Below, one piece after another: positions 3,186 through 27,162 of a DNA stretch of 27,335 nt. Made by a program: the position numbers and the translations under genes. This stretch comes from JAWLHK01 sp041690355 [NCBI: bacterium] (GTDB taxonomy: Bacteria; J088; JAWLBW01), in assembly GCA_041690355.1 (NCBI GenBank), contig JAWLHK010000033.1, forward strand, positions 1-27,335, written 5' to 3'. Positions within the stretch are counted from its first letter, which is position 1. Each line of letters starts with the position of its first letter. The notes below the pieces were generated by a model. It worked only from the letters and a program-made list of their open reading frames with translations. It made no database searches and was not told the origin of the DNA.

Positions 3186-3256
3186 GTTTTCGACCGGCAG
3201 AGTTTTTCCGTGCGGCGCCGCCGTTCGGATGGTAAAATAAAGAGATATCCTGACTT

Positions 3257-3332
<76 letters not shown>

Positions 3333-3535: not shown

Positions 3536-3582
3536 CTGGAGCGCTCTGCTCCATGACGGTCAGCGGAGCCGAAAGGTTCCCC

Positions 3583-9500: not shown

Positions 9501-12219
9501 CCGCATCGCCGGCGCGGCCACAACGCCGTTGACGGTGGGGAACATGAGCGACACCACGGCAACTTATCCCTCGACTGTCACGGTTTCGGGGACTGGGTTC
9601 GGTTCGGTGCAGGGGACCGGCAGCGTTACGGTCGGCGGGGTTACGGCGACCATTGTCAGTTGGTCTGACACGTCGATCGAATTCCAGATTCCGAATGGCG
9701 CCTCTCTCGGCGAGCAGACCGTCGTGGTAACCAACGACAGCGGCGCGTCGGCGTCCGGCACGACGCCGATCTCGATCGTGCCGGCGATCTACGCGGTGAC
9801 CCCGTCTTCGGTCGCCCCTGGAGAATCGGTCACGTTGTCCGGCTGGAACTTCGGCACTTTGGACGACTCGAGCCAGGTGATGATCGACGACGCATTCATC
9901 AGCCCCGATTCGTGGGGTAACGTGAGCATCACTTTTACGGTTCCGCTCGAGGCCGCCGAGCAATCGTACTCCGTCGTCGTGGTCGTCGGCGGCCAGACCA
10001 GTAATGCACTGACCCTCACGGTGGCGGTGCCGGCGGTTATTCCGACCCGAAAGGTGGCCGTCATGTGGCAGTGGGGTGCGAGCGCCCCCTCCTATTTCGC
10101 GGGGACGTTCGTCAACGAAGCTTCAGCATTCGAGACCGTTTACAATGCCGACCCCGAGGGGCGCTTCGAGGCGACCGTCGTCGCGAATTTCGATTTCCTG
10201 TGGGCCTACGACGTGCTCGTCCTGCCTGACGAGCCGGTGCCCGACGCCGACCTCGCCAAGGTCGCTGAGTGGTTCGAATCCGGCGGCAAAGTGATTGTCG
10301 CGATTGACAGCGCCGCAAGCTATGCGTTCTATTCGGGATACCTCGCTCCGGAGGCCGCGGGGACCAGCGGGCACTTCACCCGCTGGGCCGACGTCTCGGG
10401 CACAGACGACCAGGAGGTCTCCGTCGCCGACCCCGCGACGGCCGGTTACACGGTGGGCCAGGTGCTTTCTTCGGAAAGCGACAAGGCCGTCCTGATCCGG
10501 AGCATCCTTCCCGAAGACGTCGTGGTGCTCACGGAGCGCGCATCCAATCCGGAATACGTCTACGCGGCCTATCGTGACGTGTCCTCGGTCGGCAGCCGCA
10601 TCGTATTTCTCGGGCAGAGCGCGGTCCTCCCCGACGCCGGCAACCTTATCCGGAATGTGAGCATCGCTCCGCTCGCAACCCGTGTCCTGTTCGCCGACGA
10701 CTTTGAGTCGGGCACGTTGGCGAAGTGGCCGCAGACCGCGGGCGGCGCCTATGTGACGACGGATTATGGCGCCTCAGGATACAAATCCGTGAAGTTGGGC
10801 GGCGATAGCAGCTCCATACAGACCCATGCCCTCGACACCACGGTTTGCCCGCTGGGCATCCGCTGGTCCTACCGGGTGAAGCGCGGGCCCGACGCCCCCG
10901 AAACCGACGACTATCTGTCGGTGTCCTATGCCTACGATACCTACTATGGGTTCATTCCTGTGGATGAGGTCTTTGGGAATTCCGCGGTTGATTCGGAGTT
11001 CACGGTACGCGAAGGCATTATTACCGCCGTCGATGCGTACCACGATGCGTTCACTCTTCTCTTTCAGTCGTTCGGTTCCGCCTGGGGAACCGATGATTTC
11101 TATGTCGACGACGTGGTCATTCGCTGCGAAAATCCGCCGTCCAGCACCGGCGGGAGCGGCGAGCAGGTGGTTTTCTTCGACGACATGGAGAGCGGCCCGA
11201 ACGGATGGACGCACGCATCCCTGGGCTCCGAAGACCTCTGGCATCAGCACGCGGGCACTTGTACTCCCCCAGGAGGAGAGCTGACCACGAGCTGGTATTT
11301 CGGCACGGCGAGCTGCACGTACGAAGGAAGCGGGCCTGTGGGCGGCCGTCTGCTTTCTCCGACGATTGCTTCGCTCCCCGGCTCTGCGGTGTTGAACTTC
11401 CGGTATTACCGGCAAACAGAGTGCGACTCCTGCACCTACGATATCACTCGGGTACTCGTTTCAATCGACGGTGGGGGCAGTTTCACCGTACTCCAGACGA
11501 TCACAGGACTTCCTGCGGGTTGGGTGGATTCGGGACCGATTGACCTCTCGAGCCTGGCGGGATACGACATCCAGCTGGCGTTCGAATTCGAGAGCATCGA
11601 CATTACCGCCAACAATTACTTCGGCTGGATGATTGATGATGTATCGGTGACGGCGCCGCCTTCCACCGCGGATGTGGACAACTATGTGGTGAGGCCCGCC
11701 CCGTATTCGTGGGTTTCCGATGCCGACTCGGGTCAGGGCGTGCTCCTGTTCGGCGTCGGGAATGACGATGGTATCATCGGGATTTCGCTTCCGTTCACCG
11801 TCAAATTGTATGCGACCGAATACGACACGCTCAGCGTCAGTTCGAACGGATTTGTCTCTTTTGGGACGCAGACTGATCACGGGTGCTGCGGAGGAACGCT
11901 TCCGACGACGCAGCTCCCCCAGACGATCATGCTGAACTGGAGAGATCTGTATCTGGGAAGCGGTGCTGAAATCCGGTATGCCATCACGGGGACGGCTCCT
12001 GACCGGCGTGTCGTCGTCAGCTATCTCAACGTAGGTAACTGTTGCAGCGGCGATTTGCCGGGCAACTTCCAGCTTGTGATCGACGAAGGTTCCAACATCT
12101 TTCTCGTTCAATATGGAGCCATTCAGTCCGTGGGCGAGGGAGGGATCAACCAGGGTGACGGCGTGACGTACACCGGATGGACGCCCGCGTTCCAGACTGC
12201 GTACTCGGTCGGGCCGTGA
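3583..12219 (+). CDS. Giant modular lipoprotein (TIG, ~93-aa repeats, FN3, RCC1 propeller, NIDO-like)
   Basis: A 2878-residue surface or periplasmic lipoprotein of unknown function. The ATG at 3583 was chosen because GAAAGG lies seven bases upstream and a lipoprotein signal follows at once (hydrophobic run, then AAAGC; lipidated Cys18). Domains read by eye, approximate residues: IPT/TIG 30-110; ten tandem ~93-residue repeats 114-1040 with recurring LGAGPF, W/FxVNG, KGD and PFDGE..G; TIG 1040-1125 and 1126-1206; fibronectin III 1207-1300; seven RCC1-like blades 1304-1650, each with HTCA..CWG-type Cys pairs; module A 1657-1806; module B 1813-1980 (ends GWMIDNV); TIG 1983-2066 and 2068-2150; Rossmann/ThuA-like domain 2155-2360; second A 2367-2520; second B 2529-2695; NIDO-like domain 2700-2878. 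The parts are typical of adhesion, carbohydrate-binding or scaffold proteins. No protease or transport motif is visible. The gene is monocistronic. Confidence 0.9.
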   Translation: MRYLLLALTLTAVAAAGCRSETEAPGGPRLVEVAPAAAAPGDLVTVIGSGLGRSGMLFLGDVRVEASSWSDREIHVTVPPLPPGTVTLFVVTGEKSNELEFEVLEAPAARPPSLTSVALGAGPFYTNDTLVAKPAGWKSESGAEPDYAYAWSVNGTAAVGFGDSLPGYAFQKGDRVQVRVTPREGDREGEPVDSNTIVIANARPVVDSVRLGAGPVDVTGTLTLAGVGVSDLDYDVITLAHQWVVNGTPLPSETGATLAAAGLAKGDSVLLRVRPFDGEDHGAWVDSGAIVIQNAVPAVAGVTFAADGYTAGEAVIAVPHGATDPDGDALSWQFAWTRDGVALDGVETDTLPGGLTTRGSTVAVRARPFDGESYGEWSESAQTVIANAPPALASVSIAGGPFQTDDTLTAVPSGWSDADDDTPGYEFAWTVNGLPVPGEIAATLGGNRFEKGDVVAVAARPFDGLSFGAWVDSVPVVIENSPPAFPQFASAVLGSGYGADAVIGVLVTGWSDPDGDVPGYRFEWSVNGTAVTDVADAALSGEYFARGDVVRVRVWPFDGESSGDPIDSNETVIVNSAPRLTAVTLGAGPFRTETTLSPAELQVEDPDGDALTFAYRWSVNGSALAVTTASLDPSWFHKGDTVTVAVQAFDGAAYSEWLESAAVTIVNTPPTLASASLGTGPFRTNDTLSVTVSGWFDADGDTAGYGYAWFVNGVTVAGETAASLSGTHFSRGDEVVCAVTPHDGEESGIAVLSNFVPIDNTLPEALALSLTPATAYTTTDLIAQWTFADDDQQVDAGSAVRWFRNGTRENTLDDELALPAAQTAKGEVWHFEVTPWDGIDWGATVTSSAVLILNTPPTLAAFSIGEGPFYRDSVLSVPPLTAEDLDNDGQTYVYRWLADGTEVGTTSTLSGAVLTRGTAIQAAARAFDGEAYSEWAYGNVVTIANSPPSITGVTLSAAVLGAGDPIAVAGIFGWQDIDGDTPGYTYEWYVNGGLVADVAASAFPAGRLAEGDEIFARVRPADGIDTGNPVDSAVLLVLPRPAIDSLSASASYYPAIVTASGQNFGAAQGTGQVLVGGVAAAIVSWSSTVIEFTVPPGAPGGAVEVIVRADTGLESAPAGLTLLPRLVAVTPSAGWTNATVAATGYHFGSPQGSGELHFNGAPAAVFAWSNAAIDFQVPVGLASGTYDVAVQSGVAFSNSVTFAIIPTPLETPVNLTAVSGAVGEATVTWDDTNWAESGYQVERRTTDSTFTVVATLPADSALFQDTGLMPGAEYTYRVIAFNGPELSPYSNADTATVRGGTFAPVSLAAGGNHTCAIVEDGRVRCWGWNYHGQLGDGTTERAPVATTVKGISGVVQLAAGSNHTCALTGDGAVTCWGENSFGQLGNGTQIGTLTPMASSFTAGVEAITAGDYHMCALLQTGALHCWGDNAYGQLGDGSTTTRTSPVTVSGLSSGVAGVDAGGIHTCAVLDTGGVKCWGYNGGGRLGNGSTATSYLPVNVSGLSGATAVSAGGSQSCAIAGGALYCWGLGGLGQTGDGAYTNRNVPVSVLGMGSGVTQITTGTLHTCALKSDGAVYCWGYNSNGQVADESFAKTGFPFRVALPLRTSAVFGGDYHTCALQVTGEVDCWGMNSEGELGADYLSVRGAPAPVVGTETPAALFADAFDSGTADAADWALLQGDAAVSGLYAHSASYALTLGAGGSASTVLFDASSCAQGVRWQYYGKRGPEAPGADVALLLRYRPSAGGWLTADEWSGSGGVDSDFIFRTGTLPGDAAHTELQFEFSNSSATAGQDHFRVDDFVVECAEPAPQYPVSVFYDDMEAGDNGWAAVSLAGTIKWHRIAEPTCSPSASSPSASWYFGTDATCSFAATNRVAGRLISPPVFDLVENAELSFHWRKGTECTSCDYDKATVQISADQGATWTQVLQVNYNSASWLPMTGISLAAWAGQDIRIGFKFDSVDGASNSFLGWMIDNVRIAGAATTPLTVGNMSDTTATYPSTVTVSGTGFGSVQGTGSVTVGGVTATIVSWSDTSIEFQIPNGASLGEQTVVVTNDSGASASGTTPISIVPAIYAVTPSSVAPGESVTLSGWNFGTLDDSSQVMIDDAFISPDSWGNVSITFTVPLEAAEQSYSVVVVVGGQTSNALTLTVAVPAVIPTRKVAVMWQWGASAPSYFAGTFVNEASAFETVYNADPEGRFEATVVANFDFLWAYDVLVLPDEPVPDADLAKVAEWFESGGKVIVAIDSAASYAFYSGYLAPEAAGTSGHFTRWADVSGTDDQEVSVADPATAGYTVGQVLSSESDKAVLIRSILPEDVVVLTERASNPEYVYAAYRDVSSVGSRIVFLGQSAVLPDAGNLIRNVSIAPLATRVLFADDFESGTLAKWPQTAGGAYVTTDYGASGYKSVKLGGDSSSIQTHALDTTVCPLGIRWSYRVKRGPDAPETDDYLSVSYAYDTYYGFIPVDEVFGNSAVDSEFTVREGIITAVDAYHDAFTLLFQSFGSAWGTDDFYVDDVVIRCENPPSSTGGSGEQVVFFDDMESGPNGWTHASLGSEDLWHQHAGTCTPPGGELTTSWYFGTASCTYEGSGPVGGRLLSPTIASLPGSAVLNFRYYRQTECDSCTYDITRVLVSIDGGGSFTVLQTITGLPAGWVDSGPIDLSSLAGYDIQLAFEFESIDITANNYFGWMIDDVSVTAPPSTADVDNYVVRPAPYSWVSDADSGQGVLLFGVGNDDGIIGISLPFTVKLYATEYDTLSVSSNGFVSFGTQTDHGCCGGTLPTTQLPQTIMLNWRDLYLGSGAEIRYAITGTAPDRRVVVSYLNVGNCCSGDLPGNFQLVIDEGSNIFLVQYGAIQSVGEGGINQGDGVTYTGWTPAFQTAYSVGP

Positions 12220-12334: not shown

Positions 12335-12718
12335 GTGCCGAGGATACGTGTTGTCTTCTACAAGGATGACGATGGCAGCGTGCCGGTCCTCGAATGGTTG
12401 CGGGGCCAGAAACCGAAGGCCAGAGACAAGGGGCGTAAATGGCTCGGTCTGCTTGCCGACCTGGGACACGAGGTGCGTCGCCCCATCGCCGATTATCTGG
12501 CGCACGACATCTATGAACTGCGCTGGTCACTCAACCATGTCCAATATCGGATTCTCTTCTTCTTCGACGGGGAGACCGCTGCCGTTCTGGCGCACTCGAT
12601 CACGAAAGAAGACATCATTCCGCCGGCGGATTTGAATCGAGCGATCGAGCGAAAGAAGAAGTACCATGCCAGCCGCAAAAAGCACACGTATGAAAAAGAG
12701 TTCCCGCAAGACCAGTGA
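12335..12718 (+). CDS. HigB/RelE-superfamily toxin (phage-derived Gp49-like)
   Basis: Probable mRNA-interferase toxin of a type II toxin-antitoxin pair, 127 residues. It starts with GTG; GGAG lies six bases upstream and no better start exists. The fold-diagnostic pattern is visible: VVFYKDDDGSVPVLEWL at the N-terminus, a Lys/Arg-rich helix, DIYELRWSLNHVQYRILFFFDG (the strand pair with the conserved YELR and YRILFFF) and a late HSITKED. The C-terminus is Lys-rich. The antitoxin gene overlaps its 3' end by about 50 nt; toxin-first order is typical of higBA. The family assignment is firm, but toxicity is inferred. Confidence 0.88.
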   Translation: MPRIRVVFYKDDDGSVPVLEWLRGQKPKARDKGRKWLGLLADLGHEVRRPIADYLAHDIYELRWSLNHVQYRILFFFDGETAAVLAHSITKEDIIPPADLNRAIERKKKYHASRKKHTYEKEFPQDQ

Positions 12719-13019
12719 TGCGGTCGAAATCACCGAACGGGAACTTGGGTTGAAGCCCCTTTCCAAGTCCAAACGGGCTGCGCTGGCGCAGAACGCTCGT
12801 ATTGCGATGGCGATCTACGAGCTGCGCACTGAGGCGGGCCTGACACAGACCGAGCTCGCCCGGCACATCGGCACGACACCGTCGGTCATTTCGCGTCTCG
12901 AAGACGTAGACTATGGCGGGCACTCGCTCTCAATGTTGCGCCGCGTGGCCTGGGCGCTCGGCCGGGATGTCGAAATCCGTTTTCCGCCGACGCGCGACAG
13001 ATCACCCGCCACTGCCTGA
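12666..13019 (+). CDS. HigA-like antitoxin, XRE-family HTH
   Basis: Likely antitoxin and transcriptional autoregulator of the preceding toxin, up to 117 residues. The helix-turn-helix is clear at about residues 57-85 (GLTQTELARHIGTTPSVISRLE), followed by a recognisable LxMLRRVAWALG helix and the C-terminal strand VEIRFP, as in HigA/XRE antitoxins fused to short N-termini. Two starts are possible: ATG 12666, or ATG 12690 (MKKSSRK), which would shorten the overlap with the toxin. No strong ribosome site separates them, so translation is probably coupled to the toxin gene. Confidence 0.87.
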   Translation: MPAAKSTRMKKSSRKTSDAVEITERELGLKPLSKSKRAALAQNARIAMAIYELRTEAGLTQTELARHIGTTPSVISRLEDVDYGGHSLSMLRRVAWALGRDVEIRFPPTRDRSPATA

Positions 13020-13749: not shown

Positions 13750-14895
13750 TCAGGCGGCCTTCTTCAGGTCGCCCTCTTGGCCCTGCGGGTCATTCCGCCA
13801 CGCGTAGTGGTGATGGAGACCGCCCAGGTGGGGTACCGCGATCAGGGTCGCCGATGGGGAAGGGCGCGACTCGACGGCGCGCCCGAGCGGCGAATCCTTG
13901 TTGAGGGTCAGGTGCGTCCGCTGGGTATTGTAGTACCGTGCGTACTCGCCGAGGAGGCGCCGCAGGTGGCGCTCGCCCAGCACGATGACATGGTCGAGGA
14001 GTTCGCGCCGCACCGTTCCCACAAACCGCTCGCAGACGCCGTTCTGCCAGGGGCATCGGAAGGCGATTTTCGAGGGCACGATATTCATGCCGCGGAGGGT
14101 CTCCTGCACGGCGTGACTGCAGAAAATGGAATCCTGATCGTGCACCAGGTAGCGGGGCGCCGGTTCATCCCCGGGAAAGGCCTCGCGAAGCTGTTGCGAC
14201 ACCCATGCGGCGGTGGGATGGGCGGTTACGTTGACGTGAAGTACCTTGCGGCGCCCGTGGCCGATGAGGACCAGCGCATACAGGAAGCCGAAGCTCGCCG
14301 TGGGCACGACGAGAAAATCCATTGCCGCGACGGCTTCGTTGCGTAGAAACGCGCGCCATGGCCGCAGGCGGTCCGCAGGGATTGGAAACTGGCGCTTGAG
14401 GATGCGCGAGACGCTGCGTTCGGAGACGTCGATGCCGAGTTTCAGCAGCTCGCCGTGAATCCGGGTCGCGCCCCAGCCGTTCTCGGTCGCCATCCGGCAG
14501 ATGGTCGCGCGGATCTCGGCCTGGAGCCGGGGACGACCTCGCCGCCGGCTTTTCGGGCGCGAGCGCATCCGCCAGACGATCCGCACGAGGTTGCGGTGCC
14601 AGCGAACGACCGTGTCGGGTTGGACGATGCGCAGGGTCTGCAGCCACAGGCCCGGAAAGAAGGTCCGGTAGACGACCCAGAACAGGCGATCCCTGTCCCT
14701 GATGCGCGGTTTGCGCTTGTGCAGGCAGACGGCGAGCTGCTGCTGTTGGGCGAGCCGTTCGAGCGCCCAGGTCTCCGGGGGCGGCCGGTAGAGCTCCGGG
14801 GCGAGCACGCGGGCCAGCCTGTAACAGGCGATCGAGATTCCGCAGCGGACGGCTTTGGCGAGCATGGCGTATCGGTAAGCAAAGCCATGATTCAA
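13750..14895 (-). CDS. IS transposase, integrase-core DDE (IS3/IS481-like)
   Basis: A 381-residue transposase of the rve/integrase-core superfamily that appears full-length. The N-terminal half has VQPDTVVRWHRNLVR and an HTH segment (RPRLQAEIRATICRMATENGWGATRIHGELLKLGIDVSERSVSRIL). The catalytic core shows Asp193 (AAMDFLVV), Asp253 (YLVHDQDS) and Glu289 (WQNGVCERFVGTVRREL), which gives DD35E spacing. The conserved YNTQRTHLTLNKDSPLGR tail is present. I could not identify terminal inverted repeats or a target duplication: the upstream end must lie between 14896 and 15010, and the downstream end before 13750. Alternative starts exist (e.g. MLAKAVRCG, ten residues in). It lies immediately downstream of the abiE operon, on the same strand. 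Confidence 0.9.
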   Translation of the reverse strand: MNHGFAYRYAMLAKAVRCGISIACYRLARVLAPELYRPPPETWALERLAQQQQLAVCLHKRKPRIRDRDRLFWVVYRTFFPGLWLQTLRIVQPDTVVRWHRNLVRIVWRMRSRPKSRRRGRPRLQAEIRATICRMATENGWGATRIHGELLKLGIDVSERSVSRILKRQFPIPADRLRPWRAFLRNEAVAAMDFLVVPTASFGFLYALVLIGHGRRKVLHVNVTAHPTAAWVSQQLREAFPGDEPAPRYLVHDQDSIFCSHAVQETLRGMNIVPSKIAFRCPWQNGVCERFVGTVRRELLDHVIVLGERHLRRLLGEYARYYNTQRTHLTLNKDSPLGRAVESRPSPSATLIAVPHLGGLHHHYAWRNDPQGQEGDLKKAA

Positions 14896-15010: not shown

Positions 15011-15934
15011 CTACCGGACTTTACCCCAGCCCTTCTTGGGCGTCCATCGTCTGTCGAGGAGCGTATTGGCGGCGAGGGCCCGCGCCACGGGCATCAGGAA
15101 TGTGCGAAGCCGCTCCGTGATATCATCGATGGGCGGCGCACCGTGGGCGCGAATCTTCTTGACGAACACATCCCACTGACGCATTTTGACGGGGTTGCCG
15201 AAGAACTCCGGTGTCAGTGCCAGCGGCTCGGCCGCCGGCACCGGCAAGTTGCGCCGCTTGAAGGTCGCCTGCATGGACGCTGAGAGCGTAGCTCCGTCGA
15301 ACTCCATGTTGCCCGCGAGCACCCAGACGTCGTAGAAGTCTTTCATGCGGCTGTTGGCCGCGCCCAGATCAACCATGGCGCTGAATTTCTCGGCGACCGA
15401 GGCTTCAGGTGGGTAGCCGAGCAGCAGTGGTTGCGGGTGATTGAGCAGGATGGGGAAAGCGACCTTGCCGGGTTTGGGTATGACTACGTCGCCGAAGCCC
15501 ACGTCGAGCTGCACCGTGGTCCGGGCGACGCCGAGCGAGGCGACGAAACGCACCCGGAGCCCCCGGTACTTCTGTTGCGCCCTGATTTCATCCACGCGGA
15601 TGCTACCGGTGTCGAAGACGAGGCCGTCGTCGGCCACTGCCGATTCCAGTGTGGACTTGACCGTCTGGTAAAGCGAACGGGCGTCTTCAGTCCTTGGCGA
15701 ATGCAGGTCGATGTCCATCGTAGGGCGAGCAAGGGAGTCGTCCCAGACGCGCATCATCATCGCGCCCTTCAGCACATACCTTTTCGCGAACGGCCCTTTG
15801 CTGAGCCGGTAGAGGAACCTCTCCATGGCGTAGAGCGTCAGCACTTCCTGGAAAGGCAGGCCCTGTGACTTTGCAAAGGTGTGGAGTCGCTCGCGCACCG
15901 AAGCCGCGACGTTTGTGACGTTTCGGCGGCTCAT
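15011..15934 (-). CDS. AbiEii/AbiGii-type nucleotidyltransferase toxin
   Basis: Putative toxin of a type IV toxin-antitoxin / abortive-infection pair, 307 residues. AbiEii proteins are DNA polymerase-beta-like nucleotidyltransferases. Motif I appears as LKGAMMMRVWDD...RPTMDIDLHSP, with the metal-binding DxD at Asp74 and Asp76. The usual glycine-serine or double-glycine is Gly-Ala here. A second family block is VAEKFSAMVDLGAANSRMKDFYDVWVL. The ATG at 15934 was preferred over the longer frame (to 15997) because it forms a 4-nt ATGA overlap with the stop of the antitoxin gene upstream, a sign of coupled translation. Phage defence activity is known for some family members and is only inferred here. 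Confidence 0.92.
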   Translation of the reverse strand: MSRRNVTNVAASVRERLHTFAKSQGLPFQEVLTLYAMERFLYRLSKGPFAKRYVLKGAMMMRVWDDSLARPTMDIDLHSPRTEDARSLYQTVKSTLESAVADDGLVFDTGSIRVDEIRAQQKYRGLRVRFVASLGVARTTVQLDVGFGDVVIPKPGKVAFPILLNHPQPLLLGYPPEASVAEKFSAMVDLGAANSRMKDFYDVWVLAGNMEFDGATLSASMQATFKRRNLPVPAAEPLALTPEFFGNPVKMRQWDVFVKKIRAHGAPPIDDITERLRTFLMPVARALAANTLLDRRWTPKKGWGKVR

Positions 15935-16533
15935 TGCAGCGCTTCCAGATACGGAAGCATCACGGACTGGACGCGGCACACGCCGGCATAGTGCCAAAGC
16001 ACGTCCCGCCGAGCGCCCTTTCGTTCAAGATAGAGCTTGAGCGCCTCGATGGCAACATCCTGGCCGATCTTGTTCCGCATCTTGAAGCAGTCGGCGACTG
16101 TCTTTTCGGGGCTGAAAACCTTGATGGGGTTGCCGTCAACGACGCGCCGCTCGATCCCTTCGGTGAGCGCCATGCCTGTAAAGCGAAAAACGCGGACGGG
16201 AGGGTATTCGAGCCTTGGCGTGTGCGTCCCTTTGGGGAGCGCGATCTGCACCTCGTGAGGAAGCTGCGTCGTGAGGTCATGCAGGGAGAGTGCAGAAACG
16301 AGACAGATGACCGCATCGGGGATGCGTAGGCCGACGATGGCAAGGTCGGGGTTCGCCAGCGGCGGGAGGCTGGCAAGTCGGTGCAGGCCGCGTGAGACCT
16401 CGACGAGCTTGCCCTCGTCACGCAGCCGGTATAGCGTTTCAGGATAAACGCCGAGACGCAGGGCTTGCGCAGTGCGAAGCATTCCATGGTGCCTCTTGAA
16501 AATCTGTATGGTCCTTTGCTCCTGGTTTGGCAT
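15931..16533 (-). CDS. AbiEi-family antitoxin/autorepressor
   Basis: Antitoxin partner of the AbiEii protein, 200 residues. AbiEi proteins carry an N-terminal winged helix-turn-helix that binds the operon's promoter and a C-terminal domain that antagonises the toxin. The N-terminus (TIQIFKRHHGMLRTAQALRLGVYPETLYRLRDEGKLVEVSRGLHRL) matches the AbiEi DNA-binding domain. The downstream blocks VCLVSALSLHDLT-like (ICLVSALSLHDLTTQ), VRVFRFTG, GNPIKVFSPEKTVADCFK and DVAIEALKLYL are the family's usual middle section. The ATG at 16533 has no good ribosome site. A strong promoter and a palindrome lie directly upstream, so negative autoregulation is likely. Confidence 0.92.
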   Translation of the reverse strand: MPNQEQRTIQIFKRHHGMLRTAQALRLGVYPETLYRLRDEGKLVEVSRGLHRLASLPPLANPDLAIVGLRIPDAVICLVSALSLHDLTTQLPHEVQIALPKGTHTPRLEYPPVRVFRFTGMALTEGIERRVVDGNPIKVFSPEKTVADCFKMRNKIGQDVAIEALKLYLERKGARRDVLWHYAGVCRVQSVMLPYLEALQ

Positions 16534-16732: not shown

Positions 16733-17431
16733 TCAGACCGAGCAGGCAACCCCGTCGCGCCCGGCGAACCGGTAGCCCCCTTCGGCGCCGGTGACGATGT
16801 AGCGCGGGCGCTCGGGTACGGGCTCGATGGCCCGGCGCAGGCGCAGGGCGAGCATGTGCAGGCGCTTGAGCGAGGGCGGGAGACTGGGTCCCCAGATGCT
16901 CGCGGCAAGCTGCTCGCAGGCGGCGCCGTCGGGGTGCCGGAGCAGGCAGGCGAGAAATTCCCATTGCCGGCCGGTCAAGGTCACCGGCGCTCCACCGCGC
17001 AGGAGCCGCTTCGCGCCGACGTCGATCTCGAGCCAGGCGTCGGCAAAGCGCAGGCGGTCGGCGCCGAAGCGGCGCACCAGATTCCGCAGGCGCGCCGCCA
17101 GTTCCGCCAGAGACGGCGGCTTGGCAAGAAAGTCGTCGGCGCCCCCCGTGAGCGCGGCCACCCGTTCGCGCTCGGTGTCGCGGCCGCTCAGCATGAGTAC
17201 GGGCAGGGTGGCGAAGTCGGGTTCTTTCCGGAGATCCGCCAGCCAGGCAAGCCCCGAAAGATCGCCGAGCATCCAGTCGAGCACGACCGCGTCGGGCCCG
17301 ATACGCGACAGGTCGGCGGGGGCCGGGGCCGTCGTCAGGCAGTGAACGCGGAAGCCGCCGGCGCTAAGCGAGCGGCTGATGGTCGACAGGGTTCGTTCGT
17401 CGTCGTCAATCAACAGTACTTTCGGCTGCAT
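16733..17431 (-). CDS. Orphan OmpR/PhoB-type response regulator
   Basis: Two-component transcription factor of 232 residues. Receiver domain about 1-118: acidic pocket Asp9-Asp11 (LLIDDDE), phospho-acceptor Asp52 (VVLDWMLGDLSG), Ser82 in MLSGRD and Lys104 (FLAKPPS). The winged-helix effector is at about 125-226 (LTGRQWEFLACLLRHPDGA, LKRLHMLALRLRRAI and the terminal YIVTGAEGGYRF wing). All phosphorylation residues are present, yet no histidine kinase is in the window. It is transcribed divergently from the subtilisin-fold gene. Its own promoter (17458-17486) has a perfect palindrome three bases upstream of the -35 box, the expected position for an activator site, so self-activation and control of the divergent gene are plausible. 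Confidence 0.94.
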   Translation of the reverse strand: MQPKVLLIDDDERTLSTISRSLSAGGFRVHCLTTAPAPADLSRIGPDAVVLDWMLGDLSGLAWLADLRKEPDFATLPVLMLSGRDTERERVAALTGGADDFLAKPPSLAELAARLRNLVRRFGADRLRFADAWLEIDVGAKRLLRGGAPVTLTGRQWEFLACLLRHPDGAACEQLAASIWGPSLPPSLKRLHMLALRLRRAIEPVPERPRYIVTGAEGGYRFAGRDGVACSV

Positions 17432-17489: not shown

Positions 17490-17506
17490 GGTAACGAAAC
17501 GTTACC
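17490..17506. promoter_or_regulatory. Perfect palindrome GGTAACG-AAA-CGTTACC, candidate regulator site
   Basis: A 7-3-7 perfect inverted repeat in the 218-bp gap between divergent genes. It lies three bases upstream of the response-regulator -35 and about 90 bp upstream of the -35 of the subtilisin-fold gene. OmpR-type regulators more often bind direct repeats, so the binding protein is uncertain. Confidence 0.5.
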
Positions 17507-17595
17507 TGTGGATAACTCACAGGTTCACCGTCGCACGCGGAAATGCAGACACCGCAAGCGGTTCAGCGTGGGCCACTTCGCACGGCGGTGGGCGC

Positions 17596-17624: not shown

Positions 17625-17649
17625 CACGCCCTTTCAAGGAGGGTTATCC

Positions 17650-20600
17650 ATGCGCGTAGCGTTGTTGTTGAGTGCCGGTCTTCTTGTCATGGGGTCCATG
17701 GCCGAGGCCGATTCGTCGTCCAGTCTGCAATCCGCCGTCGGGTTCGATGAGCGTCTTCTCCTCGAGAGTCTGACCATCGAGCCGGTGGAATTCTTCAGCC
17801 CGCACGTCGGGTCTCTTGCGATTACGGGCCGGGCCTCTGTCGAGGCTGCCGCCGGTGTCGACGGCGATTCGGCGCAGCATGCCTTCGCGCTGCAAGCAGC
17901 CGTGCAGATTTCCGGAGTCGACCCGGTGCAGCCGGTGGTCGATACGGTTCTTGGAACGGCAATGGTCACGCAGAGCGGCCCGGTCGACTTCGGACTCTCC
18001 TGGTCGGGGCTTCCGGGCGGCGCGACGCTCCCCGACGGTGTGTACCGTCTCGATCTCGAGGCCTCGCTGGTGCGCAGCGGCCCCGGCGCGAGCGGCCGCG
18101 TGCTCGATACCGATACCTTCGCAGGCCCGGTCTTCGTGTATGACGCGACGCCGCCCCAGGGCGCGTGGAATGTGGCGGCAGGGGCCTTCCTCAACGTCGA
18201 CCGCCCGCTGCTCGCGGCCACGTACGGCGATGCGCTGGCGGGGATCGATACGGCGAGCCTCCGTATTGAGCTCGATGGCGCCGACGTGACCGCCTCGTTC
18301 GCCGTGAGCGCGGGCGAAGCCGTCTGGACGCCCGCCGCGCCGCTCGCGGAAGGGACCCATACCCTCACGTTTTCGGTCCTGGACCGGGCGGGGAACGAGG
18401 CCGTCGTCACCACCTCGTTCACCATCGACATCACGCCGCCCGCGCTGAGCCTGACGCCGGCCACGGGCACGCAGCTCGCGACCCAGACCCCCGACCTGCG
18501 CGCGGCCTACAGCGACGCGCTGGCGGGGATCGACGCCGGCAGCGTGGCCGTTTCGCTCGATGCGGTCGACGCCACCGCCCGGTTTGCGATTTCGAACAGC
18601 GAAGTTGTCTGGACCCAGGATGCGCCCCTGGCCTACGGCGACCACACCTTCACCGTCTCGGTGGCCGATCGCGCGGGCAACGTCGCGTCGGCCACGGTCG
18701 ACTTCGCCATCGTGGCGCCGTACCGCTACTTCACCCTCGACGGCGGCGAAATCCGCTTCGACGTCGTGAACACCTACTTCCTCGTGAAGCTGGCCGACGG
18801 CGTCTCGCCGGTCGCGGTCGGCGGCGACCTGGCCGCGGCGGGTGCTTCGGCGATCGCGCAGCAGCCCGATCCGTTCGGCTTCTACGAAGTCGGCGTGGCC
18901 GCGGGGAGCTCGGTGGCCGGTCTGCAGGCGGCCGCGAAACTGATTCCCGGTATCGCGAAGGTGCACCCGGTCGTCTCCTGGCCCGACGGACGGGCGACGG
19001 GTACGGCCGACGGCGTCTACGTGAAGTTCGCCGCGGGAACGTCGGATGCCGACGCCCGCGCCCTGCTGGCCCAGGCCGGCGCCGTCGACGTCGCCAATGA
19101 CTGCTGCGAACCGTTCGCCTATCTCGCCGCGGGGAGCCTGACCGATGCGTCGGATGACTTCCTGCTCGCCGACCGCCTGCGCGCGGAGCCCGGCGTGACC
19201 TATGCCGCCCCGGCGCTCGTCATCCGCTATGCGGAATCGGTTGGCGGCGTGCTCGATTCGTCGGTGACGTCGACCCAGGGCTATCTGGCCCAGGCCGGCA
19301 TCACGCAGAGCCGCGCGCTCGTCTACGGTTCTGCCGACTATCTCGTGAGCTATGAGGCGGCCCCCATCGGCCTGCTCAGCACGGGGGTGCAGCATGCGCA
19401 GCCCGGTCTCGCGGGCCGGCTGCTCGACGGCTACAGCGCCTTCGGCGATACGGCGGACCTGACCGGAACCGACCACGTCGAAAACAGCCTCGGTACGGCC
19501 ATGGCCGGCGTGCTCGCGGCCAACTGGGGCACGTACGGACTCGAAGGGGTGACCAAGGATTCGCCGCTCGTGCCCGCCAAGGTGCGCCAGTACAGCTGCG
19601 GCGAGATTTCGGGCGCCTGCTTCTGGGTCGCTTCGGACCGCGGCATCAAGCAGGGGGCCAAGACGGTGCTCGACAGCGGCGCCCGCGTGCTGCTGTTCGA
19701 CTCGCGCTTCGCCGAGTATCTGCCGCAGACCATCGCCTACCTGAACGCCGCGCTGCCCGCCGCCGCCGACAACCGCGGCGCCGTGGCCGTGTTCCCCATG
19801 GGCGACGAGAAGCATGAGCTGTATCCGTACCGCGCGCCCACGCCGCTGCACATTGCGAACGCGGCCTTCGTGACGGCCATCGACGAGAACGATCGCATTC
19901 TCGAGCGCGCCAACGTGCACGATCGGGATGCGGCGCCGACGACGATCAACTACGCCGCGCCGGGCAGCCCGGTTCTGACGCTCGATCCCGTCGGGGCTGC
20001 CGGCGCCGCCGCCGGCGACACGGCCGTCTGGCAGGGGACGCCGATGGCCGCGGCCATCTTCGCGGGGAGCACGGCGCTCTCGTTCCTCATCGACGACGGC
20101 CTCACGGCGCAGGAGATTCTCGACATCTACCACCAGACCGGCACCCTGAGCGTCGAGGAGATCGAGCGGTCGCCGCTCTTCAAGTTCTTCCTCTGGAAGC
20201 TGACGCTCCTGCACGCCAACACGCTGGTCGAAGAGAACCTGTGCCTGAGCACCGACGCGAGTCCGGCGTACGGCTACATCCACCGTGCGACGCTTGCCGG
20301 GAACCTGATGACACTTCCGCTGCCGCCGAACGTCCGGCTCACCGTCCAGGGAAGCCACACGAGCACGCTCGCGGGGTATACCCTGTACAAGGAGAAGCCC
20401 GGAGTCGGGAATCCTGGCCAGCCGCGGCCGCTCTGCGCGCAATTCAGCTGGACGGGGAATACCTACGTCTTCCTGCTCCCGCTCGACAAGCGCGTCGTCC
20501 GCTTCACCCCGTCGACCGCTGACATCGTGAAGGTGCGTGCCGGGATCCGGCGTGGGATGAACCAGACCGAGGCCGACCTTCTGGGTGTCCCCCGCAATGA

Positions 20601-21105
20601 CTATTTCGCGTATGAAAGCGACGGTCTCGGGGTCTACTACGAAGCCAAGCCGTACTCTGTCTTCGGTACGCAGCAGCCGTACAGCGCGCCGGCATACCTG
20701 CACATGAAGAACCTGGCGGGGGCCGAGCTCGACGTGGCGCCGTCGTTCCTGCGGGTCTGCGCGCGGCAGTGCTTCCTCTTCCTCTGCCGCACGAAGTGCT
20801 CGCCGGGGGTGTCGGTTCTCGATACGCCGGACGGGGACCTGACCGAGGCGCAGGTTGCCCTGAAACACGCGGTGCTGGCCAACGAATCGCTGGCCTACGA
20901 GTACCGCCGGCTTGAAGCGGATTTCGATCCGAACGATCCGGGCTTTGACGAGCGTATCCTGACTCAGGATGAAGCCGAGCGGCTCGAGGCGTTCCGCGTC
21001 GAACTGAGCGCCTCGGTCGGGGCCGACCTGCTGCTCAGCGCCGTCGGCTTCTTCGACAATCCGCTGGACCGCGTCGGCGCGACCTACGCCGACCTGATGC
21101 ACTGA
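17650..21105 (+). CDS. Secreted subtilisin-fold protein lacking the catalytic residues (pseudo-subtilase)
   Basis: A 1151-residue secreted protein. The ATG at 17650 was chosen for its strong ribosome site and the signal peptide MRVALLLSAGLLVMGSMAEA. Regions: beta-sandwich about 37-165; two bacterial Ig-like domains 166-358, each with GDALAGID and DRAGN; two propeptide-like alpha/beta segments 358-535 (TYFLVKLADG..., GVYVKFAAGTSDADARALL...); subtilase-like domain about 545-840; unrecognised C-terminal region 840-1151, Cys-rich near 1035-1055 (CARQCFLFLCRTKC). The subtilase fold is recognisable from IGLLSTGVQHAQPGL, SLGTAMAGVLAANWGTYGLEGV, VTAID, INYAAPGSPVLTL and GTPMAAAIFAGSTAL. However, the active-site positions read Ser577 (for Asp), Leu614 (for His), Asp719 (for the oxyanion Asn) and Pro798 (for Ser). 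Proteolysis is therefore unlikely; a binding, chaperone or decoy role is conceivable. A terminator follows directly. Confidence 0.85.
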   Translation: MRVALLLSAGLLVMGSMAEADSSSSLQSAVGFDERLLLESLTIEPVEFFSPHVGSLAITGRASVEAAAGVDGDSAQHAFALQAAVQISGVDPVQPVVDTVLGTAMVTQSGPVDFGLSWSGLPGGATLPDGVYRLDLEASLVRSGPGASGRVLDTDTFAGPVFVYDATPPQGAWNVAAGAFLNVDRPLLAATYGDALAGIDTASLRIELDGADVTASFAVSAGEAVWTPAAPLAEGTHTLTFSVLDRAGNEAVVTTSFTIDITPPALSLTPATGTQLATQTPDLRAAYSDALAGIDAGSVAVSLDAVDATARFAISNSEVVWTQDAPLAYGDHTFTVSVADRAGNVASATVDFAIVAPYRYFTLDGGEIRFDVVNTYFLVKLADGVSPVAVGGDLAAAGASAIAQQPDPFGFYEVGVAAGSSVAGLQAAAKLIPGIAKVHPVVSWPDGRATGTADGVYVKFAAGTSDADARALLAQAGAVDVANDCCEPFAYLAAGSLTDASDDFLLADRLRAEPGVTYAAPALVIRYAESVGGVLDSSVTSTQGYLAQAGITQSRALVYGSADYLVSYEAAPIGLLSTGVQHAQPGLAGRLLDGYSAFGDTADLTGTDHVENSLGTAMAGVLAANWGTYGLEGVTKDSPLVPAKVRQYSCGEISGACFWVASDRGIKQGAKTVLDSGARVLLFDSRFAEYLPQTIAYLNAALPAAADNRGAVAVFPMGDEKHELYPYRAPTPLHIANAAFVTAIDENDRILERANVHDRDAAPTTINYAAPGSPVLTLDPVGAAGAAAGDTAVWQGTPMAAAIFAGSTALSFLIDDGLTAQEILDIYHQTGTLSVEEIERSPLFKFFLWKLTLLHANTLVEENLCLSTDASPAYGYIHRATLAGNLMTLPLPPNVRLTVQGSHTSTLAGYTLYKEKPGVGNPGQPRPLCAQFSWTGNTYVFLLPLDKRVVRFTPSTADIVKVRAGIRRGMNQTEADLLGVPRNDYFAYESDGLGVYYEAKPYSVFGTQQPYSAPAYLHMKNLAGAELDVAPSFLRVCARQCFLFLCRTKCSPGVSVLDTPDGDLTEAQVALKHAVLANESLAYEYRRLEADFDPNDPGFDERILTQDEAERLEAFRVELSASVGADLLLSAVGFFDNPLDRVGATYADLMH

Positions 21106-21190: not shown

Positions 21191-21225
21191 CCGACTGGCG
21201 ACTGCCGACTGACGACTGAAGACTT
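21191..21225. repeat. Heptanucleotide array, CCGACTG type (5 units)
   Basis: 7-mers CCGACTG, GCGACTG, CCGACTG, ACGACTG, AAGACTT, preceded by degenerate ACTG-containing units from about 21169. It ends at the first base of the pncA stop codon (minus strand). Confidence 0.8.
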
Positions 21226-21845
21226 CAGCGTCGCCCCGCCATCACCGCCTCCGCCTGCACGATCCCCACTCCCGCCTCCTGCAGCCGCTGGCGCACGGCC
21301 GGGAACCCCGCGACGCCGATGGCCCGCGTGGCGTCCTCGATGAGCGTCGCCTCGAAGCCGAGCCCGACGGCATCGTGCAGGGAATAGTTCACGCAGAAAT
21401 CCGCCGCCAGGCCGACGAAGTAAACGTGGTCGACGCCGCGCCCGCGCAGGTAGCCGGCGAGTCCGCTCGCCTTGCGGTGCTCGTTGTCGAAGAACGTGCT
21501 GTAGCTGTCAATCTCCCGATCGGTCCCTTTGCGGATGATCGCTTCCACCCGCTTCGTGACCAGCTGGGGCGACAGCGCCGCGCCGGGGGAATCCTGCACG
21601 CAGTGATCCGGCCAGAGAATCTGCTCCGATCCGAAGAGCGGAATGCGGTCGCCCGGCTTCTTCCCGGGATGGTTCGAGGCAAAGCTGACGTGATCCTGCG
21701 GATGCCAGTCCTGGGTCGCAACGACGAGCGGAAAACACTCCTGCAGCCGGTTCACGAGGGGAATGATCTCGTCGCCATGCGGAACGGGGAGGGCGCCGCC
21801 GGGGAGAAAATCCGGCTGGATATCGGTGACTATGAGCGCGTCCAT
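21225..21845 (-). CDS. pncA: Nicotinamidase
   Basis: Hydrolyses nicotinamide to nicotinate in the NAD salvage pathway; cytoplasmic, 206 residues. The isochorismatase-like catalytic triad is complete: Asp8 (IVTDIQPDF), Lys106 (IIRKGTD) and Cys151 (ADFCVN), with the cis-peptide region LAADFCV. Metal ligands are visible as Asp46, His48, His52 (TQDWHPQDHVSF) and His81 (WPDHCVQ). The start lies 16 bases inside the 3' end of pncB, so the two are co-transcribed and supply successive steps: nicotinamide to nicotinate to nicotinate mononucleotide. A heptamer array abuts its stop codon. Confidence 0.96.
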   Translation of the reverse strand: MDALIVTDIQPDFLPGGALPVPHGDEIIPLVNRLQECFPLVVATQDWHPQDHVSFASNHPGKKPGDRIPLFGSEQILWPDHCVQDSPGAALSPQLVTKRVEAIIRKGTDREIDSYSTFFDNEHRKASGLAGYLRGRGVDHVYFVGLAADFCVNYSLHDAVGLGFEATLIEDATRAIGVAGFPAVRQRLQEAGVGIVQAEAVMAGRR

Positions 21846-23281
21846 GCCGACCTGTGCTTTTCGATGAGGGCCCCCCGCAGGCGGTGCAGTTCGCGGCTGA
21901 GCCCGAGCGGATACGGCTGCGGTTCGGTCAGGGTGCGGTGCGGGGCGGGCAGGCTCGCCAGCCGCGCCCGCGCGTAGGCGGCGATCTGCGGCAACGGGCG
22001 CGGCGCGTCGGTTCGCCGCCCCTCGCGCATCACGGGACGCAGCAGCGGCTCGAGCGACACATCGCGCAGTGGGCGGATAGCCTCTCCGGTGCGCAGATCG
22101 AGCATCTCGCCGGGGGCCCCCTCGGTGGCGAGCCCGATGACGTCGCCGGCGAATTCCCCCCGATCGGTGTGCAGGCGGTAGACCTGCTTGATTCCAGGCA
22201 GGGTGATCTTCTCCGGGGTCTCCGACAGCTTCAGGCGCGGCTCGCCGTCGGCCATCGCCAGCTTGTAGACCCCGTCGAGGGCCGCGTCGGGCCGGCCGGT
22301 CGTTAGCCGAGTCCCCACGCCGAAGATGTCGATGGGGGCCCCCTGCGCCAGCAGATCGCGGATGACGAACTCGTCGAGCTGGTTCGAAGCGACGAGCTTC
22401 ACGTCGCGGAATCCGGCGTCGTCAAGCATGCGCCGCGCGGCGTGGGCGAGGGCGCCCAGATCGCCGCTGTCGAGGCGGATCGCCCGCATCCGATGCCCCT
22501 GCGCGGCAAGCTCGCGGGCGACCGTGATCGCGTTCGGGACGCCGCTCTCGAGCGTGCTGTAGGTGTCGACGAGCAGAATGCAGCGGTCGGGGTACGCGGC
22601 GGCGAATGCGCGGAAGGCGCTCAGCTCGTCGGGATGGCTCTCGATGTAGGAGTGCGCCATGGTTCCGGCCGCCGGCACGTCGAACGCAAACGCGGCGTAG
22701 ACGTTCGAGGTGCTGTCGAAGCCGCCGACGATGGCGGCCCGCGCCGCCTGGATGGCCCCGAGCCCCTGTCCTCGCCGCAGCCCGAACTCGCTGCAGACCC
22801 GGTCACCGGACACCGAGCGGATGCGCGCCGCCTTGGTGGCGATGAGCGATTCGAAGTTGAGGAAATTGAGCAGCATCGACTCTACCAGCTGCGCCTCGAG
22901 CATCCCCCCGTCGACGCGCACGATGGGCTCGAAGGGGAACACGGGTTCACCCTCGGGGTGCGCATAGACATCCCCACGGAAGCGGAAGGTTTCCAGGTAC
23001 GCCAGAAAGTCGGGGCGGAACCCGTTGCGCTCAAGCCACCCGAGGGCCTCGGGGCCGAAGCGCAGGTCGGCCAGGGCGTCGAGCAGCGTCTCGAGGCCGG
23101 CGAAGAGGGTGAATCCGCCGCCGAAAGGGTTCTTGCGGAAGTGATAGTCGAAGGCCGCGCGGGCCTCGTGCCGCCCTTCGCGGAAGTAGGCCTGCGCCAT
23201 GGTGAGCTCGTAGAGATCGGCGTAGAGCCCGATGTTGTCGTCCAGCAGATTCACGATGGGTACCGCGTCTGCGGCCACCAT
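21830..23281 (-). CDS. pncB: Nicotinate phosphoribosyltransferase
   Basis: Converts nicotinate and PRPP to nicotinate mononucleotide, coupled to ATP hydrolysis, in the Preiss-Handler branch of NAD synthesis. The product is 483 residues, within the bacterial range. Family motifs: LYADLYELTMAQAYF near the N-terminus, AAFDYHFRKNPF, VESMLLNFLNFESLIATKAARI, EFGLRRGQG, FDSTSNV, GTMAHSYI (the His that is phosphorylated in characterised enzymes), LLVDTYSTLESGVPNAI, RAIRLDSGDLG and IDIFGVGTRL. The start was taken at the ATG 23281; no strong ribosome site is visible, and a slightly different start cannot be excluded. It overlaps pncA by 16 bases. Confidence 0.96.
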   Translation of the reverse strand: MVAADAVPIVNLLDDNIGLYADLYELTMAQAYFREGRHEARAAFDYHFRKNPFGGGFTLFAGLETLLDALADLRFGPEALGWLERNGFRPDFLAYLETFRFRGDVYAHPEGEPVFPFEPIVRVDGGMLEAQLVESMLLNFLNFESLIATKAARIRSVSGDRVCSEFGLRRGQGLGAIQAARAAIVGGFDSTSNVYAAFAFDVPAAGTMAHSYIESHPDELSAFRAFAAAYPDRCILLVDTYSTLESGVPNAITVARELAAQGHRMRAIRLDSGDLGALAHAARRMLDDAGFRDVKLVASNQLDEFVIRDLLAQGAPIDIFGVGTRLTTGRPDAALDGVYKLAMADGEPRLKLSETPEKITLPGIKQVYRLHTDRGEFAGDVIGLATEGAPGEMLDLRTGEAIRPLRDVSLEPLLRPVMREGRRTDAPRPLPQIAAYARARLASLPAPHRTLTEPQPYPLGLSRELHRLRGALIEKHRSAWTRS

Positions 23282-26466: not shown

Positions 26467-26496
26467 GCCGCAGCCGCGCCCTAGCGCGGCTGCGGC
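26467..26496. other. Perfect 13-bp GC hairpin at convergent gene ends
   Basis: GCCGCAGCCGCGC / GCGCGGCTGCGGC with loop CCTA. The stem spans the last codons and the stop of the deoxynucleoside kinase gene. No T-run follows on either strand, so it is not a classical terminator, though it could stop or protect the converging transcripts. Confidence 0.6.
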
Positions 26497-27116
26497 AGGT
26501 AGTACTTGGTTCCCCCGCGCATCGTCATGATCTCGCGCGCGAGCTCGTTGAGCGCCTCGGGTTCCCGCGTGTCGATCTGGTTCGTGTTCACGACCAGCAG
26601 CGGCGTCTCGGTGTAGTGGAAGAAGAACTGGTTGTAGCTCTTCGAAAGTTCCACCAGATAGTTTTCCTGAATGTTGCGCTCGTACTCCCGCCCGCGCTTG
26701 CGGATGCGCTGGAAGAGGGTATCGAGATCGGCCTGCAGGTAGACGACCAGATCGGGCTTCACGATTTTGCAGTCGAGCGCCTGAAAGACCTTCTCGTACA
26801 GCGCCAGCTCGTCTTCGTTCAGCGTCAGATGGGCGAAGATGCGATCCTTCGCGAACAGGTAATCGCTCACCAGCCCGCCGCGCGCGAAAAGCGTCTGCTG
26901 CGGCAATTGCTCCTGCTGGCGGTAGCGGCTCAACAGAAAGAAGAGCTGCGTCTGGAAGGCGAAGTGCTTCGGGTCGCGGTAGAAACCGGGGAGGAATGGA
27001 TTTTCTTCGACCGCTTCGAGCAGCAGGTCGGCGCCGATGCGCCCGGCAAGCGCCTTGGCGAACGTCGTCTTGCCGACCCCGATCGGTCCCTCGATGGCGA
27101 TGTAACGCGGCTTCAC
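26481..27116 (-). CDS. Deoxynucleoside kinase (dGK/dCK family)
   Basis: Phosphorylates deoxynucleosides to monophosphates in nucleotide salvage; cytoplasmic, 211 residues. P-loop GPIGVGKTT right at the N-terminus, then EAVEENPFLPGFYRDPKHFAFQTQLFFLLSRY (substrate-site helices), the DYLFAKDRIFA segment that contains the conserved Asp-Arg pair, VVYLQADLDTLFQRIRKRGREYERNI (LID region), and YNQFFFHY. Substrate choice between purine and pyrimidine deoxynucleosides cannot be settled by eye. The GTG at 27116 gives the normal family N-terminus (KPRYIAIEG). An ATG at 27158 would add 14 unconserved residues and place the -10 TACACT (27124-27129) inside the gene. Confidence 0.9.
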   Translation of the reverse strand: MKPRYIAIEGPIGVGKTTFAKALAGRIGADLLLEAVEENPFLPGFYRDPKHFAFQTQLFFLLSRYRQQEQLPQQTLFARGGLVSDYLFAKDRIFAHLTLNEDELALYEKVFQALDCKIVKPDLVVYLQADLDTLFQRIRKRGREYERNIQENYLVELSKSYNQFFFHYTETPLLVVNTNQIDTREPEALNELAREIMTMRGGTKYYLPQPR

Positions 27117-27123
27117 GCTCCAA

Positions 27124-27129
27124 AGTGTA
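27124..27129 (-). promoter_or_regulatory. TACACT -10 element, leaderless-type promoter
   Basis: On the minus strand TGTTACACT (extended -10) ends seven bases before the GTG at 27116, the same spacing as at 25417-25430. No independent ribosome site at a normal distance. Confidence 0.4.
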
Positions 27130-27162
27130 ACAGAGCGGCCCCCGTGCTGTCGCCCCATGCGT

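What the first reader, a model, noticed from the sequence alone, without database searches (positions are those of the whole stretch)
19330..20110. Subtilisin-fold protein with all catalytic positions replaced
Seen: subtilase landmarks are in order, but the DTG position reads STG (Ser577), the HGTHVAG position reads LGTAMAG (Leu614), the AAGN oxyanion position reads PMGD (Asp719) and GTSMA reads GTPMA (Pro798). Known: S8 peptidases need Asp, His and Ser. The gene is intact, has a good promoter, a strong ribosome site and a terminator, and keeps Ig-like and propeptide-like domains, so it looks selected rather than decaying. Inference: a secreted pseudoprotease with a binding or regulatory role.
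Basis: partly seen in the sequence, partly recalled or inferred. Interest (0 to 1): 0.68.

Follow-up and report, generated by a model that had tools for sequence, protein, structure and literature searches.

The report
Secreted subtilisin-fold protein lacking its active site
A bacterial gene encodes a protein, probably secreted, with the shape of a protein-cutting enzyme (subtilisin) in which every residue needed for cutting has been replaced, so it most likely works by binding something rather than by cutting; a few such 'dead' subtilisins are already known, so it is an interesting new example rather than a new principle.

Summary
The 1151-residue product of 17650-21105 (+) has a signal peptide (by eye), two Ig-like domains, a prodomain-like region, a subtilisin-fold domain (569-830) and a C-terminus of unknown family. 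The S8 match is real: Pfam E 2.7e-7; 55.8 bits with a profile built here against at most 8.6 bits for 2000 shuffles. The model superposes on subtilisin at Z 28, though its alignment held only subtilases. At the catalytic columns it reads S/L/D/P (577, 614, 719, 798); the 42 other fully covered rows read DHNS (40) or EHNS (2). Best reading: a pseudosubtilase that cannot self-process by the S8 mechanism and acts by binding; its partner is unknown. No orthologue was found, so conservation of the replacements, the key test of selection, could not be made. Bacterial pseudosubtilases are known (CspC, CspA); this one lacks their jelly-roll insertion. New member of a known kind.

The parts
17636..17643 (+). 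Ribosome-binding site AAGGAGGG, 6 bases before the ATG
   Evidence: seen directly in the sequence
17650..21105 (+). Gene for the 1151-residue pseudosubtilase (P0001)
   Evidence: homology in this frame; codon-position GC 0.689/0.497/0.866, like neighbouring genes
17650..17709 (+). Sec-type signal peptide, residues about 1-20
   Evidence: by eye; no predictor run
18247..18429 (+). Bacterial Ig-like domain 1 (best stretch residues 200-260)
   Evidence: Pfam Big_13 E 7.4e-16, 2 stretches
18529..18705 (+). Bacterial Ig-like domain 2 (residues 294-352)
   Evidence: Pfam Big_9 E 4.8e-5, best stretch; Big_13 has two stretches
18775..18972 (+). Possible first prodomain-like unit (residues 376-441), predicted strand-helix-strand-strand-helix-strand
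   Evidence: AlphaFold2 secondary structure, ten-residue block pLDDT 57-76; no Pfam match and no sequence match to the second unit
19012..19224 (+). Second prodomain-like unit (residues about 455-525)
   Evidence: tblastn to the region before an intact S8 domain in L165; weak Fervidolysin_NPro-like match E 0.077, below cut-off; strand/helix pattern at low confidence, block pLDDT 46-69
19354..20139 (+). Subtilisin-fold domain without catalytic residues (residues 569-830)
   Evidence: Pfam PF00082 573-828 E 2.7e-7; 55.8 bits with own profile; Z 28.0 to subtilisin 1st2
19378..19380 (+). Codon of Ser577 at the catalytic Asp position
19489..19491 (+). Codon of Leu614 at the catalytic His position
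19804..19806 (+). Codon of Asp719 at the oxyanion Asn position
20041..20043 (+). Codon of Pro798 at the catalytic Ser position
20155..21102 (+). C-terminal region of unknown family (residues 836-1151), 6 cysteines, helical end
   Evidence: no Pfam match up to E 10; no listed genome match goes beyond residue 840; cysteines; helices
21113..21138 (+). Terminator-like hairpin, 11-pair stem

Best explanation
The gene encodes a secreted pseudoprotease of the subtilase (S8) superfamily. Shown here: the domain is homologous to subtilases and all four positions of catalysis (Asp, His, Ser and the oxyanion Asn) hold other residues; a prodomain-like segment still precedes it. Inferred: the domain folds like subtilisin but cannot cleave by the S8 mechanism, so it cannot cut off its own prodomain, which stays attached in cis and covers the cleft, as in the uncleaved CspC. 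The protein then works by binding: the Ig-like domains, the occluded subtilisin platform and the C-terminal region form a multi-domain binding or scaffold protein outside the cytoplasm, which may act on an active protease, on another partner, or as a sensor.
For: S8 homology: Pfam E 2.7e-7; own profiles 34.0 bits and 55.8 bits against at most 8.6 bits in 2000 shuffles. Catalytic tetrad SLDP; of 43 fully covered rows the 42 others are 40 DHNS and 2 EHNS (56 rows aligned, 13 partly covered rows left out of the count). Conserved columns kept: 0 of 4 catalytic, 17 of 27 others, one-sided Fisher p 0.032. Model of residues 449-836: pTM 0.66, mean pLDDT 65.1; subtilisin fold Z 28.0, rmsd 2.9, 239 aligned. 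Prodomain-like segment kept (low-confidence pattern). Intact frame of 1151 codons with codon-position GC like neighbouring genes; under random substitutions the first stop appears after a median of 32 changes, 1000 runs. Longest end branch of 47 S8 rows, 2.95 against a median of 0.66, as expected after loss of catalytic constraint.
Against: No orthologue found, so nothing shows that the replacements are conserved or the gene is under purifying selection. 10 of 27 non-catalytic conserved columns are also replaced, as would be seen in a gene losing constraint. The comparison rows lean towards intact enzymes: the family search kept only matches at E 1e-10 or better, a limit this protein (Pfam E 2.7e-7) would not pass. 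The fold model used an alignment of subtilases only, which pulls it towards that fold. No partner or ligand is known; binding is by analogy. Secretion rests on a signal peptide read by eye. No promoter was found.
Confidence: 0.72

Rival explanations
1. A gene in decay: the ancestor was an active secreted subtilase, constraint was lost, and this copy has not yet gained a stop or frameshift.
For: Longest branch in the tree; 10 of 27 other conserved columns also changed; no orthologue found; no sigma-70-like promoter found; the antisense strand is open for 1152 codons, so openness is cheap at this base composition.
Against: Only about 24-37% identity over the matched stretches to the relatives found, yet no stop or frameshift in 1151 codons, while the first stop comes after a median of 32 random substitutions; GC at codon position 3 of 0.904 in the S8 domain, in the range of neighbouring genes; ribosome site and terminator-like hairpin in place. 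How many of the changes came after the loss of activity is not known.
Confidence: 0.14
2. The protein is still a hydrolase that uses other residues (for example His582 or His609, or Asp719 with a different nucleophile).
For: His582 and His609 lie a few residues from the Asp and His positions; Asp719 is an ionisable residue in the oxyanion place.
Against: The nucleophile position holds Pro798, and no substitute nucleophile is apparent; the alignment of the His motif with L167 puts Leu614 at the His without a gap.
Confidence: 0.07
3. The S8-like domain is only a structural spacer inherited from a protease, and the function lies wholly in the Ig-like or C-terminal regions.
For: Ig-like domains and a large C-terminal region of unknown family; no listed genome match goes beyond residue 840.
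Against: The domain keeps 17 of 27 non-catalytic conserved columns and a prodomain-like unit, more than a pure spacer needs.
Confidence: 0.12

Closest known systems
CspC and CspA of Clostridioides difficile (subtilisin-like pseudoproteases of spore germination)
   Same: Bacterial subtilisin-fold proteins with replaced catalytic residues and, in CspC, a prodomain that stays uncleaved (PMC6636752, passages; PMC12880746, abstract).
   Different: Csp proteins carry a jelly-roll insertion of about 130 residues in the subtilase domain and CspA and CspC lost two catalytic residues; here the S8 match spans 256 residues without such an insertion, all three triad residues and the oxyanion Asn are replaced, and Ig-like domains and a long C-terminus are present. 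No Csp sequence was compared directly.
PCSK9
   Same: A subtilase whose secreted form works on its receptor without needing catalysis (PMC13276728, title and start of abstract in a search listing).
   Different: PCSK9 cuts off its own prodomain, which stays bound (same listing); this protein lacks all catalytic residues. Eukaryotic.
   Same: L164 is the best sequence match of the region (E 1.2e-12); same S8 domain and, in L165, the same prodomain-like segment.
   Different: Intact D/H/N/S; no match to the C-terminal region of this protein was reported.
Fervidolysin (1r6v) and mirolase (8ehe)
   Same: Among the best Foldseek matches of the model; the weak prodomain match here is to a family named after fervidolysin.
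   Different: Proteases by their names in the PDB; their active sites were not compared here.

Membership tests
Subtilase superfamily (Pfam PF00082, Peptidase_S8), by descent | Sequence match above the family cut-off | tested here: met
   30.6 bits against a cut-off of 21.8, E 2.7e-7; 55.8 bits with own profile
Subtilase superfamily (Pfam PF00082, Peptidase_S8), by descent | Subtilisin fold | tested here: met
   AlphaFold2 model pTM 0.66; Z 28.0 to 1st2, 239 aligned, rmsd 2.9. Caveat: the alignment consisted of subtilases
S8 serine peptidases (active enzymes) | Asp, His, Ser catalytic triad and oxyanion Asn | tested here: not met
   Ser577, Leu614, Pro798, Asp719 in those columns
S8 serine peptidases (active enzymes) | Proteolytic activity and self-processing | not testable with these tools
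   needs purified protein
Csp-type pseudoproteases (CspA, CspC) | Jelly-roll insertion of about 130 residues in the subtilase domain | tested here: not met
   S8 match 573-828 covers profile positions 6-270 of 288 in 256 residues; feature from PMC6636752
Csp-type pseudoproteases (CspA, CspC) | Prodomain kept uncleaved on the dead domain (shown for CspC) | tested here: inconclusive
   A prodomain-like segment is present; cleavage cannot be tested
Pseudoenzymes (functional, selected) | Catalytic replacements conserved among orthologues under purifying selection | tested here: inconclusive
   No orthologue found: genome contigs, viral contigs, plasmids, S8 domain only, ten searches of sampled genomes
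Subtilisin prodomain (Pfam Fervidolysin_NPro-like) | Match above the family cut-off | tested here: not met
   Only 13.8 bits against a cut-off of 21, E 0.077, for residues 449-561; no family for 366-451

The most novel reading that the evidence does not exclude
A new family of secreted, permanently zymogen-like pseudosubtilases: two tandem prodomain-like units locked on a dead subtilisin platform, combined with Ig-like domains and a new cysteine-containing C-terminal domain, serving as an extracytoplasmic receptor, scaffold or decoy, possibly under control of the divergently encoded OmpR-type response regulator.
Probability: 0.2. Interest if true: 0.55.

Novelty: new member of a known kind. 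Interest (0 to 1): 0.36.

Why it matters
Described bacterial pseudosubtilases seem few: in the listings of the paper searches made here (11 and 15 papers listed; 15 and 10 of many more) the bacterial examples I saw were the Csp proteins of C. difficile and of Paraclostridium bifermentans. Most of the matching papers were not listed or opened. A secreted one outside that group, with every catalytic position replaced and a prodomain-like segment kept, would show that the subtilisin platform has been reused for binding more than once. Without orthologues or a partner it stays one suggestive protein.

Tried and rejected
Looking for orthologues: the genome-contig scan with residues 366-1151 found 51 pattern matches and no relative; the viral-contig scan found 8 and no relative; plasmid tblastn with residues 561-820 found none. 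Searches of sampled genomes with residues 366-1151 (genomes with a match / genomes searched, E limit): 0/249 (1e-5), 1/148 (1e-3), 3/148 (1e-3), 1/148 (1e-3; the listed genomes repeat those, an avoidable repeat), 7/247 (1e-4), 5/246 (1e-4), 2/29 (1e-4), 1/12 (1e-4), 3/198 (1e-4; overlaps), 3/392 (1e-6; overlaps). All listed matches lie in query 90-475 (P0001 455-840). They fall in 20 distinct loci, and all 20 read DHNS at the four columns. The tool warns that an empty answer shows nothing unless a match is known to exist.

Finding the host: no genome is held for the window. NAPRTase matches (best 80 of 257 kept) were mainly Bacteroidota, mixed with other groups; RNase PH matched 11 of 19 genomes, at best 60% in Pseudothauera. 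Of ten regions around rph, L327 (genome of L074, titled Deltaproteobacteria) shows amidase-rph-rdgB-tRNA-Pro and L330 (genome of L076, Thermosulfurimonas) rph-rdgB-tRNA-Pro. Not decisive; host left open.

Subtilase-seeded viral scans: A1 was too diverse to scan with; L159 and L167 gave no relatives, L164 gave two. A sequence duplication between the two prodomain-like units was looked for and not found. The second AlphaFold2 job (residues 366-1151) gave a poor model overall (pTM 0.45, mean pLDDT 53.7) and did not repeat the strand-helix pattern of residues 455-511 seen; no fold is claimed for the C-terminus. The BFVD search gave mainly viral subtilases among its 20 matches at E 0.001 or better. 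A catalytic His at His609 with an insertion was considered and rejected because the ungapped alignment with L167 fits better. In the tree the place of P0001 inside a 29-row group is unresolved.

Rows dropped and biases: in the tetrad count 13 of 56 rows did not cover all four columns; L139 and L143 hold the same reading frame, and loci of neighbouring genes such as L136/L147 overlap, so rows are not all independent; one EHNS row (L142) is doubtfully aligned. The PF00082 loci were kept at E 1e-10 or better, which favours intact enzymes. In one search the set was cut from 76 to 56 domains by similarity; part of these came from viral contigs picked by an intact His motif, so the His column there is conserved partly by construction; the region 672-690 aligns differently in MAFFT and in the profile, so the count 17 of 27 depends a little on the alignment.

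Full report
What was checked. The finding describes a subtilisin-like domain in which the catalytic positions are replaced. The gene is 17650-21105 on the + strand (1151 residues). The ORF list starts it at an upstream TTG, 17596, but the ATG at 17650 has the ribosome site AAGGAGGG six bases upstream and starts a typical signal peptide.

Is the domain a subtilase? Pfam Peptidase_S8 matches residues 573-828 with 30.6 bits (cut-off 21.8, E 2.7e-7). The best S8 chain by sequence in the PDB is 7w2a, E 0.0017. A profile built from 8 subtilase domains of other genomes scores 34.0 bits, a larger one from 76 domains 55.8 bits over residues 569-830; neither contains the window's protein. 2000 shuffles of residues 556-836 reach at most 8.6 bits. 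An AlphaFold2 model of residues 449-836 (16-row alignment, pTM 0.66, mean pLDDT 65.1) superposes on subtilisin 1st2 with Z 28.0, rmsd 2.9 over 239 residues; Foldseek agrees. The other alignment rows were subtilases, so the model is not independent of the sequence match.

Are the catalytic positions replaced? Both profiles put Ser577, Leu614, Asp719 and Pro798 in the Asp, His, Asn and Ser columns. The MAFFT alignment with 15 other S8 sequences lists the same columns as nearly invariant D, H, N and S. In the largest tally 56 rows were aligned and 43 covered all four columns: 40 DHNS, 2 EHNS (one of them, L142, doubtfully aligned) and this protein SLDP (a first tally gave 36 DHNS, 2 EHNS and SLDP in 39 fully covered of 52 rows). 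These rows lean towards intact enzymes, because the family search behind most of them kept only matches at E 1e-10 or better. Among 31 columns at least 80% conserved in 56 non-redundant domains, 0 of 4 catalytic and 17 of 27 other columns are kept (one-sided Fisher p 0.032). So the loss is strongest at catalysis, but ten other conserved positions are changed too, including a His near the Asp motif (Gln584) and the Pro after the Ser motif (Ala802).

Architecture. A Sec-type signal peptide (by eye), about 170 residues without a Pfam match, two bacterial Ig-like domains, then a prodomain-like region. Residues about 455-525 align with the region before an intact S8 domain in L165, match Fervidolysin_NPro-like weakly and below its cut-off (E 0.077), and are predicted as strand-helix-strand-strand-helix in one model, at low confidence (block pLDDT 46-69); the second model does not repeat this. 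Residues 376-441 are predicted as strand-helix-strand-strand-helix-strand with block pLDDT 57-76; this could be a further prodomain-like unit, but no sequence match supports it. After the S8 domain come about 315 residues without a Pfam match, with six cysteines and a predicted helical end.

Is it a living gene? The frame is intact and the codon-position GC (0.689/0.497/0.866; S8 domain third position 0.904) resembles neighbouring genes. Under random substitutions the first stop appears after a median of 32 changes (95% by 138, maximum 278, 1000 runs, no indels modelled), far fewer than the protein's differences from the relatives found. Against this, the antisense strand is open for 1152 codons over the same span, so an open frame is cheap here; no sigma-70-like promoter was found; and in a tree of 47 S8 domains this protein has the longest end branch (2.95, median 0.66), which fits either a new function or loss of constraint. 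A terminator-like hairpin begins 7 bases after the stop codon.

Relatives. No orthologue was found in genome contigs, viral contigs, plasmids (S8 domain only) or ten searches of sampled genomes, some overlapping. Those searches brought in 20 distinct loci, and all 20 read DHNS. The best is L164 (E 1.2e-12), which like L165 and L167 comes from the phylum of the genome that holds L068 (titled Planctomycetota). No listed match goes beyond residue 840. The host is unknown.

Mechanism. An S8 domain without Asp, His, Ser and the oxyanion Asn cannot cleave by the S8 mechanism and so cannot cut off its own prodomain. In CspC of C. difficile the prodomain stays uncleaved because of substitutions in its triad (PMC6636752, passages), and CspC works with a second pseudoprotease, CspA, as a signalling heterodimer (PMC12880746, abstract). 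By analogy I expect a zymogen-like, permanently occluded platform that works by binding, in a secreted protein whose Ig-like domains also point to binding. No other S8 domain was recognised by Pfam in the 22 frames of the window scanned, so any partner protease would probably lie elsewhere. The gene is divergent to an OmpR-type response regulator (16733-17431, -), with two perfect 7-base inverted repeats between them; a regulatory link is a guess.

Verdict. Pseudoproteases are an established kind; MEROPS gives non-peptidase homologues identifiers of their own (PMC5753285, passages), and subtilisin-like ones are described in C. difficile. This is a new member, outside the Csp group by the missing jelly-roll insertion.

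Noticed in passing
17644-21102 (-): The antisense strand of the pseudosubtilase gene is open for 1152 codons, probably an effect of the high GC at codon position 3; a warning against using open frames as evidence in this genome.
   Followed up: partly
17490-17524: Two perfect 7-base inverted repeats, one after the other (GGTAACG/CGTTACC and ACCTGTG/CACAGGT), in the 218-base gap between the divergent response regulator and the pseudosubtilase gene; possible operator sites.
   Followed up: no
3553-12219 (+): A 2888-residue lipoprotein-like product with TIG, fibronectin III and RCC1-repeat domains.
   Followed up: no
15011-16533 (-): AbiEi/AbiEii-type toxin-antitoxin pair.
   Followed up: no
12335-13019 (+): Gp49-like protein followed by an overlapping helix-turn-helix protein, a HigBA-like arrangement (name recalled; Pfam matches), with an integrase-core (rve) transposase-like frame at 13750-14895 (-).
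   Followed up: no
21225-23281 (-): Isochorismatase-family and nicotinate phosphoribosyltransferase genes overlap like an operon; the best 80 phosphoribosyltransferase matches are mainly Bacteroidota although the window has 58-74% GC, and an isochorismatase-family relative lies beside the gene in many of those loci.
   Followed up: partly
2713-3332 (+): Five tRNA genes (Pro, Arg, His, Arg, Lys) downstream of amidase, rph and rdgB genes; part of this order recurs in L327 and L330.
   Followed up: partly
26481-27158 (-): Deoxynucleoside kinase gene, antisense to the longer open frame listed at the window's end.
   Followed up: no
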